64,000 nucleotides of DNA from positions 682,001-746,000 of the forward strand of contig NZ_CP023408.1 of assembly GCF_003665435.1 (NCBI RefSeq). The letters run 5' to 3'. Positions 10,362-59,839 of this stretch are shown one piece after another. The translations under genes were made by a program, and so were the position numbers. The DNA is from Streptomyces fungicidicus. GTDB taxonomy: Bacteria; Actinomycetota; Actinomycetes; Streptomycetales; Streptomycetaceae. The notes beneath the pieces are model-generated. The model was given only the letters and a program-made list of their open reading frames with translations, was not told the origin of the DNA and made no database searches. The first letter of the stretch is position 1; each line of letters opens with the position of its first letter.

Positions 10362-12118
10362 ATCTCCAACAGGGCCACTTGCCACAGGGCGTTCGCCCCG
10401 CGGTTCGTTCGGTGGGCGCCGGGCGCCTTCAGCAGTCCGGCGACACAGGACTCGTCGAACAGGCCGCGACGTCTCGCCTCCGGAGCGCGGAGCGCCTCTC
10501 GGACCCGCTCCAGGACGGGCCCGGCCATATGGGTGATGGCGGGGACCGGGAAGTAGCCCTTCGGGCGGTCGACCACGTCCTGCGGCAGCAGTTTGCGGCC
10601 GGCCTCCTTGAGCACGCCCTTGCCGCCGTCGGCCAGCTTGAGATCCGGCGGGCAGGCGGCGGCCAGCTCCACCAGCTCGTGGTCCAGGAACGGCACCCGG
10701 GCCTCCAGGCCCCAGTCCATGGTCATGTTGTCGACCCGTTTCACCGGGTCGTCCACGAGCATGACGTGCGTGTCCAGCCGCAGTGCGGCGTCCAGCGCGG
10801 TCTCCGCGCCCGGTACGGCCATGTGCTCCCGGACGAAGCGGCCGGAGACGTCCTCCGGCGCGCGCATGTCGGGCTGCAGCATCCGGGTGAGATCGGCGTG
10901 CGGCCGGTCGAAGTACGTCTCGGCGTACCGGTCGGGTTCCCGCTCCCGGGCGACCGAGGCCAGCCGCGGATACCAGTGGTAGCCGGCGAACACCTCGTCG
11001 GCGCCCTGACCGCTCTGGACGACCTTCACATGCTTCGCCACCTCCTGGGACAGCAGATGGAAGGCGACCGCGTCATGGCTGGTCATCGGCTCGCTCATTG
11101 CCGCGACCGCCCCCTCCAGGGCCGTCGACACGCGCGCGGAAGGAACCGTCAGCCGGTGGTGGTCGGTGGCGAACTCCCCGGCGATCAGGTCCGAGTACCG
11201 GAACTCGTCCCCCTCCTCGCCGCCCTCCGACGCGAACCCGACGCTGAACGTCGCCAGGTCCCGCTGTCCCTCGTCGGCCAGCAGGGCCACGATCAGACTG
11301 GAGTCCAGGCCGCCCGACAGCAGGACGCCCACGGGCACGTCCGCGACCATCCGCCGCCGCACCGCGGTGCGCAGCGCGTCGAGGACCGCGTCCCGCCACT
11401 CGCTCGGACCCATGTCCGCGTACTCGGGGCGGCGTGTGTACGACGGCTGCCAGTAGTGGCGGTCCCGGTGGCTGCCGTCCGGTTCGACCACGCGCACGGT
11501 GGCGGGAGGGAGCTTGCGCACCCCGGCCAGCACGGTGCGGGGCGCCGCCACGGTCGCGTGCCAGCTGAGGTACTGGTGGACGGCCGCGGGATCCAGCGAG
11601 GTGTCGACGTCCCCGGCCGCGAGCAGAGCCGGAAGGGAGGAGGCGAAGCGCAGCCGCCCGGGGGTACGCGCCAGGTACAGCGGCTTGATCCCGAGCCGGT
11701 CGCGGCCCAGGACGAGCCGGCCGGTGCGGTGCTCGACGAGGGCGAAGGCGAACATGCCGTGGAAGCGGTCCACGCAGGCGGTGCCCCACTGCCGGTACGC
11801 CTTGAGGATGACCTCGGTGTCGGAGGTGGACCGGAAACGGTGGCCGAGGCCCCGCAGTTCCTCGCGCAGGTCCCGGTAGTTGTAGACGCAGCCGTTGAAG
11901 ACGCCGGTGACCTCCTGCTCGGCGTCCGTCATGGGCTGGGCGCCCAGGCCGGAGAGGTCGATGATCTTCAGTCGCTGATGCGCCAGCGCCACGGCGTCCC
12001 TCGCCCAGATCCCGTGTCCGTCGGGACCGCGGGCGGCGAGCCGGTCGCTCATGCGCCGTACGGCCGCGATGTCGGGCCGCCCGCCGTCGAAGCGTATTTC
12101 CCCGCTCAGACCGCACAT
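10337..12118 (-). CDS. glutamine-dependent asparagine synthase-like amidotransferase
   Basis: This 593-residue protein has an N-terminal class II glutaminase domain with the nucleophile Cys2 (MCGLSG), followed by a synthetase domain with the pyrophosphate loop SGGLDSS. Segments such as VVQSGQGADEVFAGYHWYP resemble the N-acetylglutaminylglutamine amidotransferase branch as I remember it, rather than plain AsnB. The start is fixed by the need to expose Cys2 and by GGGAGG upstream. It lies between a GCS2-type ligase and an S9 peptidase in one direction, which suggests that it amidates a small peptide. The true substrate is unknown. Confidence 0.88.
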   Translation of the reverse strand: MCGLSGEIRFDGGRPDIAAVRRMSDRLAARGPDGHGIWARDAVALAHQRLKIIDLSGLGAQPMTDAEQEVTGVFNGCVYNYRDLREELRGLGHRFRSTSDTEVILKAYRQWGTACVDRFHGMFAFALVEHRTGRLVLGRDRLGIKPLYLARTPGRLRFASSLPALLAAGDVDTSLDPAAVHQYLSWHATVAAPRTVLAGVRKLPPATVRVVEPDGSHRDRHYWQPSYTRRPEYADMGPSEWRDAVLDALRTAVRRRMVADVPVGVLLSGGLDSSLIVALLADEGQRDLATFSVGFASEGGEEGDEFRYSDLIAGEFATDHHRLTVPSARVSTALEGAVAAMSEPMTSHDAVAFHLLSQEVAKHVKVVQSGQGADEVFAGYHWYPRLASVAREREPDRYAETYFDRPHADLTRMLQPDMRAPEDVSGRFVREHMAVPGAETALDAALRLDTHVMLVDDPVKRVDNMTMDWGLEARVPFLDHELVELAAACPPDLKLADGGKGVLKEAGRKLLPQDVVDRPKGYFPVPAITHMAGPVLERVREALRAPEARRRGLFDESCVAGLLKAPGAHRTNRGANALWQVALLEIWLQTHGI

Positions 12119-16447: not shown

Positions 16448-17209
16448 ATGGCGCGAGGAGATCTCACGGACGGGCAGTGGGCGGCGCTGGAGCCGCTGCT
16501 GCCAACGGGGACGAAGGCGGGGCGACCGCCAGTCTGGCCTCGGCGGCAGCTGATCGACGGCATACGGTTTCGGGTCCGTACCGGTGTGCCATGGCGGGAC
16601 GTGCCAGTCGAGTACGGTCCGTGGGGCCGGGTCTATGACCTTTTTCGGCGCTGGCAGCGTGCCGGCGTCTGGCATCGGATCCTCACCCAGCTCCAGTCGC
16701 TGGCCGATGCGGCATCAGCACGCGGCCGGTGCCCGCAAGCGGGGCGACCTGCAGAAGGAGTCGCCGGGCTCCATTTGGCCGTTGAGCAGAGGCAAACGCC
16801 TATGTCGGTCGTCATCACAGCCGGGCAGCGCGGGGACTCGCCTCAGTTCGAAGCTGTACTGGAGAAGGTCCGCGTGCCATGCGTTGGGCCAGGCCGGCCA
16901 CGCGTCCGCCCTGTTCGGGTGCGTGCTGACAGGGCGTACGCCTCCCGTAAGAACCGCGCTTACCTGCGCCGTCGAGGGATCCGCTGCACCATCCCCGACA
17001 AGGCCGACCAGACGCGGAATCGCAAGAAGCTCGGCTCCTGCGGTGGCCGGCCCCCGCGCTTCGACCCGGCCGATTACCGCGAGCGTCACGCGGTCGAATG
17101 CGGGATCAACCGCCTCAAGAGAAACCGGGCTGTCGCAACCCGGTACGACAAGCTCGCGGTCCGCTACGAAGCGACCGTGCTCATCGCGGTCACCGGTGAG
17201 TGGCTGTGA
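16448..17209 (+). pseudogene. IS5 family transposase with internal deletions
   Basis: The frame is open for 253 residues and keeps the N-terminal DUF4096-like domain ([14 protein letters not shown]). It also keeps the later catalytic residues: Asp in RADRAY and Glu in [12 protein letters not shown]. The middle is abnormal. Compared with complete Streptomyces relatives as I remember them, the block with the first catalytic Asp (D-S-T) is missing and the next block ([16 protein letters not shown]) is read only in another frame. A second gap restores the frame before LHLAVEQ. With one of the three DDE residues lost it should be catalytically dead. Confidence 0.8.
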
Positions 17210-18407: not shown

Positions 18408-18711
18408 GAGCGCGGACGTCGCCAGCGCGAGTCCTACGGCCAGAACTCGCGTGCGCAGGCGGGAGACAGATGTCGCATGGATCCTCCAGAATCGGCGGAA
18501 GACGACCCGGGACCGGAACGTGCCCCAGGCCGGAAGGCACCTCGGCCAAGATCATCCAGGCGATTCCGTAAGCCCTTCATAGGAATTGGACCTATAACCC
18601 CCGATCGAGCTAAATGGTCAGACTTTTGCGCCGCCGCCACCTGCTGCCGCCGCCCCACTCCACCCCGCCCGGGGGGCGTCCACCCCCACCACGCCCGTGT
18701 CCTGTGACAGC

Positions 18712-18948
18712 GAATCTGGATCGATTGCCGGCGAAGCTGGACCGACGGCCGTTTGTGACAGCGAAGATGGATCGCCGCAGGTCAGGGCCGAGGCGTCGCT
18801 ACTCGCGGAGATCGTGGGCGATGCAGCGCCTCACCGGCCAGGATGATCCCGTGGTTGCTTCGGGAACGGCAGAGCACCGAACCGCCGCTTCGAGGTTCAT
18901 GCAGCACGCCAGCCTGCGGCAGTCCGTCTTCGGCAGCGATCCAGATTC
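18712..18948 (+). repeat. left copy of 233-bp inverted repeat (MITE-like)
   Basis: Bases 18712-18944 match the reverse complement of 19660-19892 with only four mismatches and no gaps. This copy also has its own perfect 12-bp terminal inverted repeats: GAATCTGGATCG at 18712 and its complement ending at 18948. A 21-base motif, TGTGACAGCGAA..TGGATCG, occurs at 18703 and again at 18754. The unit looks like a miniature element without a transposase. It encodes no convincing protein. Confidence 0.8.
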
Positions 18949-19047
18949 AGCCCGAGATGGCCAACAGCCAGGCTGTTTGGCCGCGATGAGCGCCCGGTCC
19001 GCACGTGTTCGCACGTCGGAGGCGCGGCAGGAACGCAGGTCGAGGTG

Positions 19048-19524
19048 TCAGTACGCCTCGGCCCTGAGCCCGTGGCGAATGTAGTAGAGGAACGGGGTCT
19101 TGCCGTCCTTGCCGGTCCTCATGAGGACGACCATGGCCTCGGGGTCCATGCTCTCCCCGGTGAAGAACTGGTAGCTGTCGAAGTCGGCAAGGACCTGCTC
19201 GATCCGCTCCTGTGCCTGCTGCTGCCAGGCGATCCGCTCGTCCGCGGGCAGGCGCTCCGTGATCCGCTTCAGGTACGCCTTGATGTGGCCGGTGTAGTTC
19301 TTCTTCTCGTACGTCGTCGCGACGAGGCGGTGCGCCTCGGCAACATTGAGCACCGTATGGCCGATCGAATCGGCCTCCTCGCCGTCCGTGCCACCGATGT
19401 CGAGCAAACCGGCTGCACGGGTGGAGTGCTTGCCCTCGACCACGTAACAGATGCCGTCCTCCTTGATCGGGAACGAGTCGGACAGCAACTCATCGCCGCT
19501 GAAAACGTCCTTGTAGACCTTCAT
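19048..19524 (-). CDS. translationally controlled tumour protein (TCTP) homologue
   Basis: This 158-residue protein is recognisable along its whole length as TCTP, judged against the human protein from memory. The N-terminus MKVYKDVFSGDELLSDSF parallels MIIYRD..S.DE.FSD. The central Y-x-x-HIKAYLKRI helix matches the KKYIKDYMKSI helix, and the C-terminal YQFFTGESMDPEAMVVL matches YQFF.GE.M.P.GMVAL, followed by DGKTPF and a final HGL. The flexible acidic loop is shorter than in animals. TCTP is a small cytosolic protein linked to GTPases and growth in eukaryotes, and to my knowledge bacterial members are few. The start at 19524 follows GGAG at six bases. It lies between inverted repeats. Confidence 0.88.
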   Translation of the reverse strand: MKVYKDVFSGDELLSDSFPIKEDGICYVVEGKHSTRAAGLLDIGGTDGEEADSIGHTVLNVAEAHRLVATTYEKKNYTGHIKAYLKRITERLPADERIAWQQQAQERIEQVLADFDSYQFFTGESMDPEAMVVLMRTGKDGKTPFLYYIRHGLRAEAY

Positions 19525-19576
19525 GGGGGTCTCCATCACTTGGGAATGCCGGCGACCCACCCTACCGATTGCGTAG

Positions 19577-19603
19577 TCGAACAATTACTTAACGTTATCG
19601 AAC
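19577..19603. promoter_or_regulatory. AT-rich patch with repeated TCGAAC upstream of TCTP gene
   Basis: TCGAAC occurs at 19577 and 19598, 21 bases (two helical turns) apart, around an AT-rich stretch with the palindrome TAACGTTA at 19590. It lies 50-80 bases upstream of the TCTP start. The low GC content stands out here, and a promoter or regulator site is likely but unproven. Confidence 0.35.
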
Positions 19604-19659
19604 TTGCGGGCCCAACACCGGGCTTCGCCCCCCTCGGCCTGTGATCTGTGACGCTCAAC

Positions 19660-19892
19660 CTGGATCGCTGCCGAAGACGGACTGCCGCAGGCTGGCGTGC
19701 TGCATGAACCTCGAAGCGGCGGCCCGGTGCTCTGCCGTTCCCGAAGCAACCACGGGATCATCCTCGCCGGTGAGGCGCTGCATCGCCCACGATCTCCGCG
19801 AGTAGCGACGCCTCGGCCCTGACCTGCGGCGATCCATCTTCGCTGTCACAAACGGCCGTCGGTCCAGCTTCGCCGGCAACCGATCCAGATTC
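19660..19892 (-). repeat. right copy of 233-bp inverted repeat (MITE-like)
   Basis: This is 229 of 233 bases identical to the left copy in opposite orientation. Its inner end has decayed (CAACCTGGATCG instead of GAATCTGGATCG). The two copies enclose 715 bases whose only gene is the TCTP homologue. Confidence 0.8.
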
Positions 19893-19912
19893 GGTGGCAC
19901 GGGGCAGCCCGC

Positions 19913-26713: not shown

Positions 26714-27688
26714 ATGCCGCAACACCGAGACCACACAGCCGAGTTCACCACCCCGTCGGGGCGCCTCCGACTCGCGGAGCACTGCCGCGGCATCACCGAG
26801 GCCCGCTGGTTCGCCCTCACCGTCTTCGCCGTGATCCTCGTCAACGCCGGGCTGCTGGGGGTGGAGACGTACTCCGGGGTCGTCGCGGAGTGGCACCGCT
26901 GGTTACGGCTCGCCGAACACCTCTGCCTGGTCGCGTTCAGCGTCGAGATCGTGCTGCGCATGGCCGCCCACGCCGACCGCCCCGCGGACTTCTGGAAGGA
27001 CCCGTGGAACCTCTTCGACCTCGCCGTGGTCCTGAGCACCTTCCTGCCCCTCGTCCGCGAGAACACCACGGTGCTGCGACTGCTGCGGCTGGCCCGGGTC
27101 CTGCGCACCGCGCGCTTCCTGCCCCAACTGCGCATCGTGCTCGTCGCCGTGGCCCGCAGCCTTCCCGGCACCCTGAGCTTTCTGCTGGTCGGCGCCCTGC
27201 TGCTGTACGTGTACGCGATGGTCGGCTGGGTGTTCTTCGGCCGCCACGACCCCGGGCACTACGGCTCCCTAGGCCGTGCCGTCCTCACCCTCTTCCTGCT
27301 GATGACCCTCGACGGCATCGGCGACGCGGTCCACACCGGCCTGCAGATCTCCCGCTGGAGTCTGCTGTACTACGCCTCCTATGTGCTGCTCGCCTCCTTC
27401 GTCCTCGTCAACGTCCTCATCGGGGTCGTCATCACCTCACTCGAGGAGGCGCGGGACATGGACGAGCGAAGGGAATCCCCCGACGCGCAGGGCGCGGCGT
27501 CCGCACCGGGGGACCGGCAGCTGCTGCTCCGGCGCATCGAGACCGCCCGCCGCGCCCTGGACCACCTCGAGCGCGACCTCCACGGCGCGCACGCGGCGGC
27601 GTCACTCGCGGCCCCGGAAAGGGACCGGGCCGTGCCGAGCGGCCCGCTCACGGAAGATCCGGCAGCTTCGTCCACTCGTCCCAGCTGA
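26714..27688 (+). CDS. voltage-gated ion channel (single six-helix subunit)
   Basis: This 324-residue protein has six membrane helices. S4 carries regularly spaced Arg (LRLLRLARVLRTARF) and a pore loop follows before S6. The selectivity filter reads TLDGIGD where classical bacterial sodium channels have TLESWAS, so ion preference is uncertain. A coiled, charged C-terminus (about 255-305) may form the tetramer bundle. It would act as a homotetramer in the cell membrane. Its end overlaps the convergent acetyltransferase-like gene by 41 bases. Confidence 0.88.
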   Translation: MPQHRDHTAEFTTPSGRLRLAEHCRGITEARWFALTVFAVILVNAGLLGVETYSGVVAEWHRWLRLAEHLCLVAFSVEIVLRMAAHADRPADFWKDPWNLFDLAVVLSTFLPLVRENTTVLRLLRLARVLRTARFLPQLRIVLVAVARSLPGTLSFLLVGALLLYVYAMVGWVFFGRHDPGHYGSLGRAVLTLFLLMTLDGIGDAVHTGLQISRWSLLYYASYVLLASFVLVNVLIGVVITSLEEARDMDERRESPDAQGAASAPGDRQLLLRRIETARRALDHLERDLHGAHAAASLAAPERDRAVPSGPLTEDPAASSTRPS

Positions 27689-28225: not shown

Positions 28226-29434
28226 TCACCCGGCGCGGTGGAACCCGTCGTGCCTGTCGGCCGCCGTCCCCGGGCCCGGTGCGGCCTGGGGCATGGGCGG
28301 CAGGCCCGCCGGGAGGCCCGGCAGCAGTACCGGCTCCAGCCGGATCCGCTCCTGCCGGCCCAGGTAACGCCCCAACTGCGGCGGCCGGTAGCCGGCGTCC
28401 CGGTCGTGGCGCTCCTTTGCGGGCACCGCCAGGAACTCGTTGCCGTCGGGCTCGCCCTCGCCGGTCACCGCCTCACCGAGCGGCCGGTGCAGCGGCCTGG
28501 ACAGCCGGTACATGCCCGTCCGCGAGGCGTGCAGAGTGCCCGAAACGTCGGGCCGTACGCGGAAGTCGACGCTCTCCCGGGGACGCATCACCCGGGGCCC
28601 CTCCGCGCTGAGCGTGTCCGCGTCGAACTCCAGCCCGTGCCTGCGGGCCTGGTCGACCATCCACAGCAGGGCGATGTCCGACAGCCCCGTCTCCTTGTAG
28701 CCCCCGCCGACGTCGCAGTGCACCCCGGCGAACCACACCTGCTTCAGCTCCTGCCCCCGCGCGGCGGAGCCGGGACGCAGGTGCCACAGCGCCGGCCGGA
28801 ACGCCGAGCGCTGCTCGTCGACTGCCAGCGCGTGGAACGCGGCCCTGATCCAGCCGCTCAACTCGGTGTCGTGGAACGCCCACTGGTGGTTGAACCGGTT
28901 CGCCGCCGGCTGCAGCCACGCGGCGTCCGGCACCGGGACGCCCAGCGCGCCGACCGTGTCCCACACCCCGACGAACCCGATCTCCGTCTCGTACGCGTAC
29001 GAGCGCCGGAACAACGTCGCGGCGGCGCCGTTCGGTTGCTCGATCCGGTCCCGGTACAGCGCCCACGCCTCCGGGATGCGGCCGGCGTGACGCCTCCGCA
29101 GGATGCCGCTGTTGCGCACCAGTCCCGCGAGGCTGCGGGCGGTGAACGCGCCCCGGCTGAAGCCGAAGAGGAACAGCTCGTCACCGGGCTCGTACGTCTC
29201 GACGAGGAACCGGTAGGCGTCCACGATGTTCCGCGACAGCCCCGCACCGAACGCGCCGCCGCGCAGACGGTCCCGCCGGTGGGTGCCGACACCGCTGTGG
29301 TAGTAGACGCGCTGCTCTCTCCCGGCGGCCGACACGGGGCGCACGGACAGGGCGACCTTGGCGACGTTGGTCTTGCTCGGCTGGTCCGCGAAGTTCCATG
29401 TGCCGTCACAGCAGACGACCAGATGCTTGGCCAT
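28226..29434 (-). CDS. DUF2235 (Tle1-like) alpha/beta hydrolase
   Basis: This 402-residue protein has the DUF2235 fold with the nucleophile elbow GFSRGAFTAR, an early CCDGTWN strand and a GVHCDVGGGY motif that carries the catalytic Asp/His region. The family includes phospholipase effectors of type VI secretion, but in actinobacteria the members are usually free-standing cytoplasmic enzymes. I chose the second ATG (29434), which has AGGAGGG at seven bases. No immunity gene or secretion system is next to it. Confidence 0.85.
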   Translation of the reverse strand: MAKHLVVCCDGTWNFADQPSKTNVAKVALSVRPVSAAGREQRVYYHSGVGTHRRDRLRGGAFGAGLSRNIVDAYRFLVETYEPGDELFLFGFSRGAFTARSLAGLVRNSGILRRRHAGRIPEAWALYRDRIEQPNGAAATLFRRSYAYETEIGFVGVWDTVGALGVPVPDAAWLQPAANRFNHQWAFHDTELSGWIRAAFHALAVDEQRSAFRPALWHLRPGSAARGQELKQVWFAGVHCDVGGGYKETGLSDIALLWMVDQARRHGLEFDADTLSAEGPRVMRPRESVDFRVRPDVSGTLHASRTGMYRLSRPLHRPLGEAVTGEGEPDGNEFLAVPAKERHDRDAGYRPPQLGRYLGRQERIRLEPVLLPGLPAGLPPMPQAAPGPGTAADRHDGFHRAG

Positions 29435-29575
29435 GTCCATCCCTCCTCACGAGAGCGCGGAACGGCGCACAGCACCACTTCCAGGATCGCACCGTGAGGC
29501 GGGCAGCGCGAAGCGAACGGCCACTCGGCACCCGCGCCGCGACGGTGACGTACCGGCGGCGTAGCGTTCGGCCGT

Positions 29576-58147: not shown

Positions 58148-58564
58148 TCAGAGCGGACGTTTTTGCTGCTCGATGTACTGGCGGACGATCGTCAACGGTG
58201 CTCCGCCGCACGATGCGGAGAAATACGAGGGTGACCACAGGTGCCCATGCATGATGGCGGGGTTGCTCTGGCCGGTGAGCTCCTGCCGTATTCGGCGGGC
58301 GGAGACCCCTTTGAGGCTGTTGACCAGCTTGGAGACGGCGACCTTGGGTGGGTAGTGCACCAACAGGTGGACGTGATCGCGTTCCCCGTTGAACTCCTTC
58401 AGCTCCGCCTCGAAGTCCTCGCAGACCTTGCGCATGATCTCTTCACAACGTGTCAGCATCTCGTCGTCGAAGACCCCGCGCCGGTACTTCGTCACAAAGA
58501 CCAAGTGCACATGCATCGCCGAAACGACGTGCCTGCCACGTCTATAGTCGTTTTCCTGATCCAT
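58148..58564 (-). CDS. tnpA: IS200/IS605 family transposase TnpA (HUH Y1)
   Basis: This 138-residue protein has the HUH motif HVHLLVHYPP and a single catalytic Tyr in IVRQYIEQQ near the C-terminus. TnpA cuts and rejoins single-stranded DNA at the hairpin ends. I set the start at MDQENDYRRG. No catalytic residue looks lost. Confidence 0.92.
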   Translation of the reverse strand: MDQENDYRRGRHVVSAMHVHLVFVTKYRRGVFDDEMLTRCEEIMRKVCEDFEAELKEFNGERDHVHLLVHYPPKVAVSKLVNSLKGVSARRIRQELTGQSNPAIMHGHLWSPSYFSASCGGAPLTIVRQYIEQQKRPL

Positions 58565-58591
58565 GAGACCAATCGTAGTAACGTCTTGGGT

Positions 58592-59839
58592 GTGCAGCTC
58601 CGCTACAACTACCGGGCCTACCCCAACGCCGCTCAGCGCCGCGCGCTGGCGCAGGCGTTCGGGTGCGCCCGCGTGGTGTGGAACGACTGCCTGCGCGACC
58701 GGAAACAAGCGCACGCTGCCGGGCTGCCGTATGTGACGTCGACGGAACTGTCCCGGCTTCGCATCACCCAGGCCAAACGCACCGAGGAACGCGCATGGCT
58801 CGCCGACGTCTCAGCGGTCGTCCTGCAACAGTCCCTGCGGGACCTGGACGCCGCCTACAAGAACTTCTTCGACAGCCTGAGCGGCAAACGGAAAGGCCGC
58901 AAGGCAGGTCCTCCCCGCTACAAGTCCAAGAAGGACACCCGGCAGTCGATCCGCCTCAACACCAACGCTTTCACCCTTCAGGACGACGGCACGGTGTATG
59001 TGGCCAAGGTTGGCCATCTCAAGGTCGAGTGGTCGCGCCGGCTCCCGGCCGCACCCACGTCCCTGACCGTCACCAAAGACAGCTGCGGCCGGTACTTCCT
59101 CAGCTTCGTCGTGGACACCAAGCCGGACATCCTCCCCGAGGCGGAGACCGAAACCGGTATCGACCTCGGACTGTCCGCCTTCGCGGTCCTGTCCGACGGG
59201 ACGAAGATCAGCACCCCGCGCTTCCTGCGCCGGGCCGAGAAGAAGCTCAAGCGTCTGCAGCGGGATCTGTCCCGCAAGCAGAAGGGGTCGAAGAACCGGG
59301 CCAAGGCCCGCATCAAGGTCGCACGCCAGCACGCCCGCGTCGCCGACCGGCGCCGGGACTTTCACCACCAGGCCTCCACACAGATCATCCGCGACAACCA
59401 AGCGGTGTACGTGGAAGACCTTGCGGTGTCCGGTCTCGCACGCACCCAGCTCGCCAAGTCCGTGCACGACGCGGGATGGTCCGCGTTCGTACGGATGCTG
59501 GAATACAAGGCTGTCAAGCACGGCCGCGCCTTCAGCAAGGTGGACCGGGCCTTCCCCTCCTCTCAGGTCTGCTCGGCCTGCGGATTCCGGGACGGCCCCA
59601 AGCCCCTGCACGTCCGGCAGTGGACGTGCGGCGAGTGCGGCACCGTGCACGACCGCGACCACAACGCTGCCCGCAACGTCCTGTTCGAAGGACGCAGAAT
59701 CGTCGCCGCCGGACGGGCGGAGACGCTAAACGCCTCGTGGAGCGCCGGTAAGACCAGGACGAAAGTCCCGGCACAGCGCGGTGAAGCAGGGAGCCCCCGG
59801 AAGGGTCAGCCGACCCAGGCCGGAATCCCTGGACTTTAG
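58592..59839 (+). CDS. tnpB: TnpB RNA-guided nuclease
   Basis: This 415-residue protein has the TnpB layout: RuvC Asp in TGIDLGLSAFAVL, Glu in VYVEDLAVSG, a zinc ribbon with CSACGF and CGECG, and the final Asp in HDRDHNAARN. All three catalytic acids are present, so the nuclease could be active. The GTG at 58592 is the chosen start. The stop lies inside the right-end hairpin. Confidence 0.92.
   Translation: MQLRYNYRAYPNAAQRRALAQAFGCARVVWNDCLRDRKQAHAAGLPYVTSTELSRLRITQAKRTEERAWLADVSAVVLQQSLRDLDAAYKNFFDSLSGKRKGRKAGPPRYKSKKDTRQSIRLNTNAFTLQDDGTVYVAKVGHLKVEWSRRLPAAPTSLTVTKDSCGRYFLSFVVDTKPDILPEAETETGIDLGLSAFAVLSDGTKISTPRFLRRAEKKLKRLQRDLSRKQKGSKNRAKARIKVARQHARVADRRRDFHHQASTQIIRDNQAVYVEDLAVSGLARTQLAKSVHDAGWSAFVRMLEYKAVKHGRAFSKVDRAFPSSQVCSACGFRDGPKPLHVRQWTCGECGTVHDRDHNAARNVLFEGRRIVAAGRAETLNASWSAGKTRTKVPAQRGEAGSPRKGQPTQAGIPGL

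What the first reader, a model, noticed from the sequence alone, without database searches (positions are those of the whole stretch)
19048..19524. Bacterial TCTP homologue inside a mobile island
The protein matches the eukaryotic TCTP family end to end (N-terminal MKVYKDVFSGDELLSD, central HIKAYLKRI helix, C-terminal YQFFTGESMDPEAMVVL). The family is typical of eukaryotes and few bacterial members are known to me. Here it is the only gene between two inverted repeats and lies in relatively AT-rich flanks, which points to transfer. What TCTP would do in a bacterium is open.
Basis: partly seen in the sequence, partly recalled or inferred. Interest (0 to 1): 0.85.

Follow-up and report, generated by a model that had tools for sequence, protein, structure and literature searches.

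The report
Eukaryotic TCTP gene in bacterial transposon
A Streptomyces genome carries an intact copy of TCTP, a protein thought to be confined to eukaryotes, as the only gene of a small transposon, and scattered relatives in other Streptomyces suggest that such eukaryotic genes have entered these bacteria, perhaps several times.

Summary
Confirmed: the ORF at 19048-19524 (-) is a full-length TCTP (PF00838, E=6e-44), a eukaryote-type gene in a Streptomyces genome, not contamination.

The 'mobile island' is a 1,209-bp unit (18698-19906) with 254-nt inverted arms (96% complementary) and a 5-bp target duplication, GCCCG. Each arm resembles a stand-alone mini-element. The ~90-bp ends recur on other elements, one of which carries TnsA, TnsB and a TniB-like ATPase: a Tn7-like family. 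Sister elements carry other cargo or none.

TCTP is rare: 3 of 392 genomes of the genus, 5 of 297 of the family, 1 of 394 of the class (the own one), and 5 plasmid records. Several copies lie beside transposases, on linear plasmids or near a contig end; three are remnants. Four close copies, the window's included, share a promoter-like -10 and show weak to moderate purifying selection. A 2020 survey states that Bacteria have no TCTP.

Function is inferred: perhaps a cytosolic, GTPase-binding accessory protein (about 0.3). A functionless passenger is about as likely.

Unexpected: one S. globisporus megaplasmid has TCTP beside ADF/cofilin and ML-domain genes, S. anulatus plasmids carry eukaryote-type eIF5A near TCTP, and cofilin matches occur in 12 of 297 family genomes.

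The parts
19048..19524 (-). TCTP coding sequence, 158 aa, ATG start, TGA stop
19531..19534 (-). Shine-Dalgarno-like GGAG, 6 nt before the ATG
   Evidence: read from the sequence; the GATGGAGA block is identical in four loci
19559..19564 (-). promoter-like -10 element TAGGGT (inferred promoter)
   Evidence: TAGGGT is identical in window, L006, L007 and L016 while most sequence further upstream diverges
18698..18951 (.). left arm of the long inverted repeat; resembles a Tn7-like mini-element
19653..19906 (.). right arm of the long inverted repeat; the mini-element copy can be followed to about 19642
   Evidence: end-to-end alignment with the stand-alone 305-bp element of L018, 209 of 261 aligned bases identical, with gaps
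18698..18790 (+). left transposon end, TGTCCTGTGAC..., with three repeats of about 21 nt (TnsB-type sites, inferred)
19814..19906 (-). right transposon end, TGCCCCGTGCC... on the minus strand, same repeats
18693..18697 (.). target-site duplication GCCCG, left copy
19907..19911 (.). target-site duplication GCCCG, right copy

Best explanation
A TCTP gene of eukaryotic, probably fungal, origin entered Streptomycetaceae, took on Streptomyces codon usage and a bacterial promoter, and circulates at low frequency on mobile DNA. In this genome it was captured between two inverted copies of a Tn7-like mini-element, and the outer ends moved the 1.2-kb unit as one piece, leaving the 5-bp duplication GCCCG (structure shown; movement inferred from it). 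The transposase must have acted in trans, because the unit has none. The protein is most likely made and used in the bacterial cytosol, where it would do what the TCTP/Mss4 fold does in eukaryotes: bind a GTPase and steady one of its nucleotide states. The candidate partners are EF-Tu (the eEF1A homologue) or small GTPases of Streptomyces. The confidence of 0.5 is for transfer, mobile unit and use inside the bacterium together; the GTPase step alone is inference, about 0.3.
For: TCTP identity; Foldseek on a low-confidence model. Eukaryotic origin: patchy presence (3 of 392 genomes of the genus; 5 of 297 of the family; 1 of 394 of the class, the own one; 0 of 14 control genomes in each), and S. 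pombe as the best PDB match for each of the three bacterial types searched. Mobile unit: arms, TSD, the same ends on other elements, TnsA/TnsB/TniB beside them in L080 with its own TSD GCGGG. Expression and use: identical TAGGGT and GATGGAGA block in four loci, open frames at 67-87% protein identity, pairwise dN/dS 0.42-0.77 over six pairs of four genes. Neutral simulation at 72% GC gave mean pN/pS 1.15, 5% point 0.78, 1% point 0.65; observed pN/pS is 0.49-0.77. GTPase face: the window keeps Glu12 and the Glu138 equivalent (E124); their role in GTPase binding is recalled. Passages of PMC4114181 and PMC7202613 mention the GTPase pocket, Rheb, likeness to Mss4 and, in a cited title, a GDI effect on eEF1A.
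Against: No partner, expression or phenotype could be tested. The Glu138 equivalent is lost in 4 of 7 bacterial copies and Glu12 is changed in 2 of 7. dN/dS is high for a working gene, only 4 genes were compared, and the simulation is crude: with a mutation equilibrium of 50% GC the mean is 0.80 and the 5% point 0.55, so most pairs would not stand out (at 90% GC the mean is 1.63). Three loci are remnants (L008, L009, L015). The fungal donor rests on four eukaryotic sequences (two from PDB, two recalled), and bootstrap support among the non-window types is 28-65. No empty site was found: in the seven strongest matches to the left neighbour the likeness stops before the right flank, within loci reaching about 1.5 kb beyond the match.
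Confidence: 0.5

Rival explanations
1. Passenger without a job: eukaryotic DNA or cDNA is taken up now and then, moved by whatever transposon is at hand, and decays.
For: Rarity, three remnants, dN/dS up to 0.77, no cargo theme among sister elements, S. anulatus plasmids with and without TCTP.
Against: Four diverged copies keep full-length frames, an identical -10 and ribosome-binding block, and pN/pS at or below the 5% point of neutral simulations at 72% GC, though not at 50% GC.
Confidence: 0.3
2. Released mimic: the protein leaves the bacterium and acts on fungi, amoebae, insects or plants, as secreted eukaryotic TCTPs do (recalled).
For: Company of other eukaryote-type genes in one plasmid island (ADF/cofilin, ML domain) and eIF5A on other TCTP plasmids; a soil lifestyle with eukaryotes (general knowledge).
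Against: No signal sequence is apparent at the N-terminus MKVYKDVF (no predictor run). I saw no secretion or injection genes annotated beside it in L016 nor among the window proteins scanned next to it; a Tle1-like phospholipase gene lies about 9 kb away.
Confidence: 0.17
3. TCTP is ancestral in Actinobacteria and eukaryotes received it from them.
For: The constrained tree with all bacterial copies together is not rejected (AU p=0.24).
Against: In the class sample only the own genome has it (1 of 394); the five loci confirmed in the wide scan are all titled Streptomyces; several hits sit on mobile or terminal DNA.
Confidence: 0.03
4. Assembly or contamination artefact.
For: None found for the window copy. 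One relative (G931, two copies) is from a genome with 7% estimated contamination.
Against: The gene lies in a 927-kb contig of a 100% complete, 0.11% contaminated genome with GC3 0.91; independent relatives exist in complete plasmid records.
Confidence: 0.005

Closest known systems
Eukaryotic TCTP family (Pfam PF00838), nearest solved member S. pombe p23fyp (1h6q)
   Same: Full-length match, E=1.6e-29, 42% identity; Y4, D6, D11, S15, D16, L67, F120 and G152 invariant in all 11 sequences aligned.
   Different: Bacterial host; shorter acidic loop, lacking the N-P-S-A-E stretch of S. pombe; no C-terminal Cys as in mouse.
TCTPs annotated on Streptomyces anulatus linear plasmids (WP_331759795.1, WP_266429713.1)
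   Same: 69% identity by tblastn over the whole protein (72% over aligned columns), same -10 and ribosome-binding block.
   Different: Not inside the Tn7-like unit (no end match); plasmid-borne about 6 kb from a eukaryote-type eIF5A gene.
Tn7-like transposons (TnsA, TnsB, TnsC/TniB), here Streptomyces sp. NBC_01454 plasmid NZ_CP109461.1 (L080)
   Same: Ends begin TG.CC.GTG.C, repeats of about 21 nt, 5-bp duplication.
   Different: L080 is 5.4 kb with three transposition genes; the window unit has none and carries TCTP. No TnsD/TniQ gene is listed in the L080 element (that gene table is incomplete).
Mobile insertion cassettes / MITE-bounded units (concept, recalled)
   Same: Transposon ends around a passenger gene, no transposase.
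   Different: Tn7-like ends and a eukaryotic cargo gene.

Membership tests
TCTP (PF00838) | Significant full-length match to the family model | tested here: met
   E=6.1e-44, 150.6 bits, cut-off 24.3, model 1-163 of 164. The N-P-S-A-E stretch of the flexible loop seen in S. pombe is absent, but the model is matched across it.
TCTP (PF00838) | Mss4-like beta core with alpha-helical hairpin | tested here: inconclusive
   AlphaFold2 model from 4 sequences, mean pLDDT 52, residues 1-58 below 50; hairpin helices 74-91 and 94-113 present. Foldseek: all 21 matches at E<=0.001 are TCTPs, best 4.5e-7, TM about 0.55.
TCTP (PF00838) | Binding to GTPases (Rheb, eEF1A) or Ca2+ | not testable with these tools
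   Glu12 kept and Glu138 kept as E124 in the window copy; functional roles recalled.
Tn7-like transposon (non-autonomous derivative) | Terminal inverted ends with repeated transposase-binding sites | tested here: met
   About 90-bp ends with three repeats, alignable with those of L080, which holds TnsA/TnsB/TniB. That the repeats are TnsB sites is inference.
Tn7-like transposon (non-autonomous derivative) | 5-bp target-site duplication | tested here: met
   GCCCG on both sides; 6 of 8 elements with both termini placed have one.
Tn7-like transposon (autonomous) | tnsA/tnsB/tnsC in the element | tested here: not met
   TCTP is the only gene recognised inside; hence filed only as a non-autonomous derivative.
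IS21-type element (considered first) | istA/istB with like ends | tested here: not met
   Own genome has only partial, weak PF01695 matches, best 60 bits over positions 95-216 of 238; the transposase-bearing relative found has Tns genes.

The most novel reading that the evidence does not exclude
Streptomycetaceae have a recurrent inflow of short, intron-free copies of eukaryotic, fungus-like housekeeping genes (TCTP, ADF/cofilin, eIF5A, ML domain), perhaps through reverse-transcribed mRNA. They settle in plasmids and chromosome arms, are passed on by plasmids and mini-Tn7-like units, and a few, such as this TCTP lineage, are domesticated to act on bacterial GTPases or the translation machinery.
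Probability: 0.2. Interest if true: 0.92.

Novelty: new variant of a known kind. Interest (0 to 1): 0.72.

Why it matters
TCTP is treated as a eukaryotic protein: a 2020 inter-kingdom survey says that Archaea and Bacteria have none (PMC7202613, passages seen). An intact copy with bacterial expression signals makes a direct test possible: what can the TCTP fold do without TOR, Rheb or eEF1A? It also shows a concrete vehicle, a mini-Tn7-like unit, for moving a eukaryotic gene among bacteria. With cofilin and eIF5A in related genomes it points to gene flow from eukaryotes into Streptomyces, a direction that is less often documented (general knowledge).

Tried and rejected
IS21 origin of the ends: my first reading, dropped when an element with like ends proved to hold TnsA/TnsB/TniB and the genome showed no good IstB.

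Resident transposase: the genome has a TnsB/TniB pair at C1 about 13 kb (42% identity to the L080 TnsB; Pfam), but no convincing like ends were found in the 19 kb around it, so it is not claimed as the mobiliser.

Empty site: 100 relatives were searched with the left neighbour; 56, the own genome included, gave some match, and the seven strongest loci other than the own were compared. All seven match the left neighbour gene (some also its upstream edge) and none the right flank. The S. anulatus plasmid pair with and without TCTP is 99.7% alike up to base 10382 and then diverges, so it shows no clean single-gene insertion.

Structure: only 4 sequences were given, and the model is poor. The second job was not used.

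Viral or phage carriage: 23 pattern matches, 0 confirmed in viral contigs; no phage match.

Co-occurrence of TCTP and cofilin: 5 and 12 of 297 genomes, shared by 1 (G799); not evidence of linkage.

Rows left out: the tree uses 7 bacterial sequences; the remnants L008, L009, L015 and duplicate copies (L010, L011, L012, L013, L014, H2-H4) were left out. The TSD count covers the 8 elements with both termini placed (window, L018, L071, L075, L076, L078, L080, L084); L019, L020/L079 and L081 (an end degenerate or partial) and single ends were left out. L075 and L076 carry the same cargo and are not independent, and the L078 duplication is a run of C.

Literature: ten searches (one search returned nothing, and searches listed 20 of 168, 15 of 104 and 12 of 321 papers). 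No title listed concerned TCTP, cofilin or eIF5A genes of Streptomyces. Only listings were seen, except passages of PMC7202613 and PMC4114181.

Full report
OBSERVATION. The ORF at 19048-19524 (-) codes for 158 aa. PF00838 matches it end to end with E=6.1e-44, and the 11 PDB chains at E<=0.001 are TCTPs by name, S. pombe first. It is the only TCTP match in a 7.67-Mb, 100% complete genome, and lies in a 927-kb contig. The low-confidence model (mean pLDDT 52) has 21 Foldseek matches at E<=0.001, all TCTPs. Chance or contamination is excluded in practice: GC3 is 0.91 and independent relatives lie in complete plasmid records.

THE UNIT. Two 254-nt arms, 96% complementary, bracket the gene, and no third copy was found in the genome. 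The unit runs from TGTCC at 18698 to GGGCA at 19906, and GCCCG stands on both sides. The right arm (19642-19906) aligns from end to end, with gaps, with a stand-alone 305-bp element on a Streptomyces plasmid (L018; 209 of 261 aligned bases identical), which has its own duplication CGGGT. So the gene sits between two inverted mini-elements, and the outer ends share a duplication, which suggests that the whole moved as one.

THE PARENT. The first ~90 bp of the arm recur in 17 plasmid records and, with the whole arm as query, in 23 of 131 genomes of the genus at E<=0.001, own genome included (many of these matches are short or weak). In NZ_CP109461.1 (L080) such ends bound a 5.4-kb element with TnsA (PF08722), TnsB (Mu-transpos_C, rve) and a TniB-like ATPase, flanked by GCGGG. 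Relatives carry ArsR plus a cation-efflux gene (L084), a DUF4232 protein (L075; near-identical ORF in L076), ORFs without a Pfam match (L078, L019, L020) or no annotated gene (L018). Of 8 elements with both termini placed, 6 have a 5-bp duplication and 2 (L071, L076) do not. By chance one pair agrees with probability about 0.0024 at 72% GC, and 6 or more of 8 with about 5e-15 if independent; independence is not strict. I therefore call the unit a non-autonomous Tn7-like derivative.

DISTRIBUTION. PF00838 is found in 3 of 392 genomes of the genus, 5 of 297 of the family and 1 of 394 of the class; the own genome is in all three sets. A pattern scan of a collection of 84,980 species gave 18 candidates and 5 confirmed loci, all titled Streptomyces; it finds only copies close to its patterns and did not return the G861 copy. 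Viral contigs and phages gave none; plasmids gave 5 records. Intact copies: the window; Streptomyces sp. CBMA156 (two contigs; its unnamed twin G931 has 7% estimated contamination); G861 (about 57 kb from the end of its contig); four S. anulatus plasmids; S. minutiscleroticus (DDE transposase about 230 bp downstream); SID9727 (DDE_3 transposases on both sides, shortened protein with GTG start); S. globisporus megaplasmid. Remnants: L008, L009, L015.

RELATIONSHIPS. Window, CBMA156, G861 and S. anulatus form one group (support 100); the other three fall among fungal sequences with weak support, and one origin for all is not rejected (AU p=0.24). Two of the four eukaryotic sequences were recalled. 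S. pombe is the best PDB match for each of the three bacterial types searched, clearly so for S. minutiscleroticus (186 against 131 bits for the next). PDB holds few TCTPs, so this is a weak pointer to fungi. I read it as transfer from fungi or relatives, possibly more than once.

IS IT USED? The four close copies share TAGGGT, a typical Streptomyces -10 (recalled), and a GATGGAGA block before the ATG, while most sequence further upstream differs. dN/dS is 0.42-0.77. Neutral simulation with 95 substitutions gives, at 72% GC, mean pN/pS 1.15 and a 5% point of 0.78; at 50% GC, mean 0.80 and 5% point 0.55; at 90% GC, mean 1.63. Observed is 0.49-0.77. Selection is therefore likely but weak, and at 50% GC most pairs would not stand out. 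Remnants show that the gene is dispensable.

HOW IT MAY WORK. Shown: family by sequence, intact frame, expression signals by comparison. Inferred: cytosolic protein. Inferred further: GTPase binding. In eukaryotes the TCTP core resembles Mss4, and TCTP is reported to act on Rheb and eEF1A (passages and cited titles in PMC7202613 and PMC4114181). The window copy keeps Glu12 and the Glu138 equivalent, residues that I recall as important for GTPase binding, but 4 of 7 bacterial copies have lost the latter and 2 of 7 the former. EF-Tu and the small GTPases of Streptomyces are the obvious candidates. I put this at about 0.3, a functionless passenger at 0.3, and a released mimic at 0.17.

WIDER PATTERN. 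Unasked for, the survey met other eukaryote-type genes. S. globisporus NZ_CP108665.1 has, in one stretch of about 6.5 kb with TCTP, ADF/cofilin (E=3e-33), an ML-domain protein (5.7e-8), a subtilase, a cyclophilin and an EF-hand protein; the last three may be bacterial. S. anulatus plasmids carry an eIF5A whose best PDB matches are eukaryotic eIF5As, the first at E=4e-63, on 6 records, 4 of which also have TCTP. Cofilin matches occur in 12 and eIF5A in 1 of 297 family genomes, the latter between ORFs that look like transposases by eye and without the lysine loop.

NOVELTY. The plasmid copies are already annotated 'translationally-controlled tumor protein', so the gene is in databases. I found no paper on it in ten searches of an open-access library, and one survey denies it. 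The thing is a known protein family in an unexpected domain of life on a Tn7-like carrier: a new variant of a known kind.

Noticed in passing
L023:19874-26319 (NZ_CP108665.1 about 337.9-344.3 kb): S. globisporus megaplasmid stretch with EF-hand, ADF/cofilin, GH108, cyclophilin, subtilase, TCTP and ML-domain genes, with a DDE_3 transposase and, further out, an integrase-like gene on one side: a cluster partly of eukaryote-type genes.
   Followed up: partly
L016:5370-5840; L037:1474-2037: Eukaryote-type eIF5A on six S. anulatus plasmids, with the lysine loop of the hypusine site (site recalled); a second, diverged eIF5A in another Streptomycetaceae genus lacks the loop and sits between transposase-like ORFs. 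The window's genome has no eIF5A match.
   Followed up: partly
L024-L036: ADF/cofilin matches in 12 of 297 Streptomycetaceae genomes, 13 loci; the 7 whose surroundings were viewed lie in bacterial-looking, high-GC DNA. L024 is the strongest (141 bits).
   Followed up: partly
L009:1696-1773: In a TCTP remnant the N-terminal part is replaced by three tandem copies of a 26-bp GC-rich palindrome-like unit that resembles CRISPR repeats without spacers.
   Followed up: no
L087:8293-11519 (G000:C1 about 13.3-16.5 kb): TnsB-like and TniB-like genes near a contig end of the window's genome, followed by a large helicase-associated protein; no convincing ends like the window unit's nearby.
   Followed up: partly
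L084:6004-7313; L075:1259-2196; L078:1261-1772; L019:3006-4029; L020:3502-4930: Sister non-autonomous Tn7-like units with different cargo (ArsR plus cation efflux, DUF4232, unknown ORFs); L084, L075 and L078 have exact 5-bp duplications.
   Followed up: partly
window 26714-27688 (+) and 28226-29440 (-): A voltage-gated-type ion channel (Ion_trans, E=2e-41) near a Tle1-like phospholipase (E=6e-84).
   Followed up: no
window 58241-59839 (+) and 16448-17209 (+): An IS200/IS605 OrfB (TnpB-type) gene in a lower-GC stretch, and an IS4/5-type transposase 1.5 kb left of the TCTP unit.
   Followed up: no
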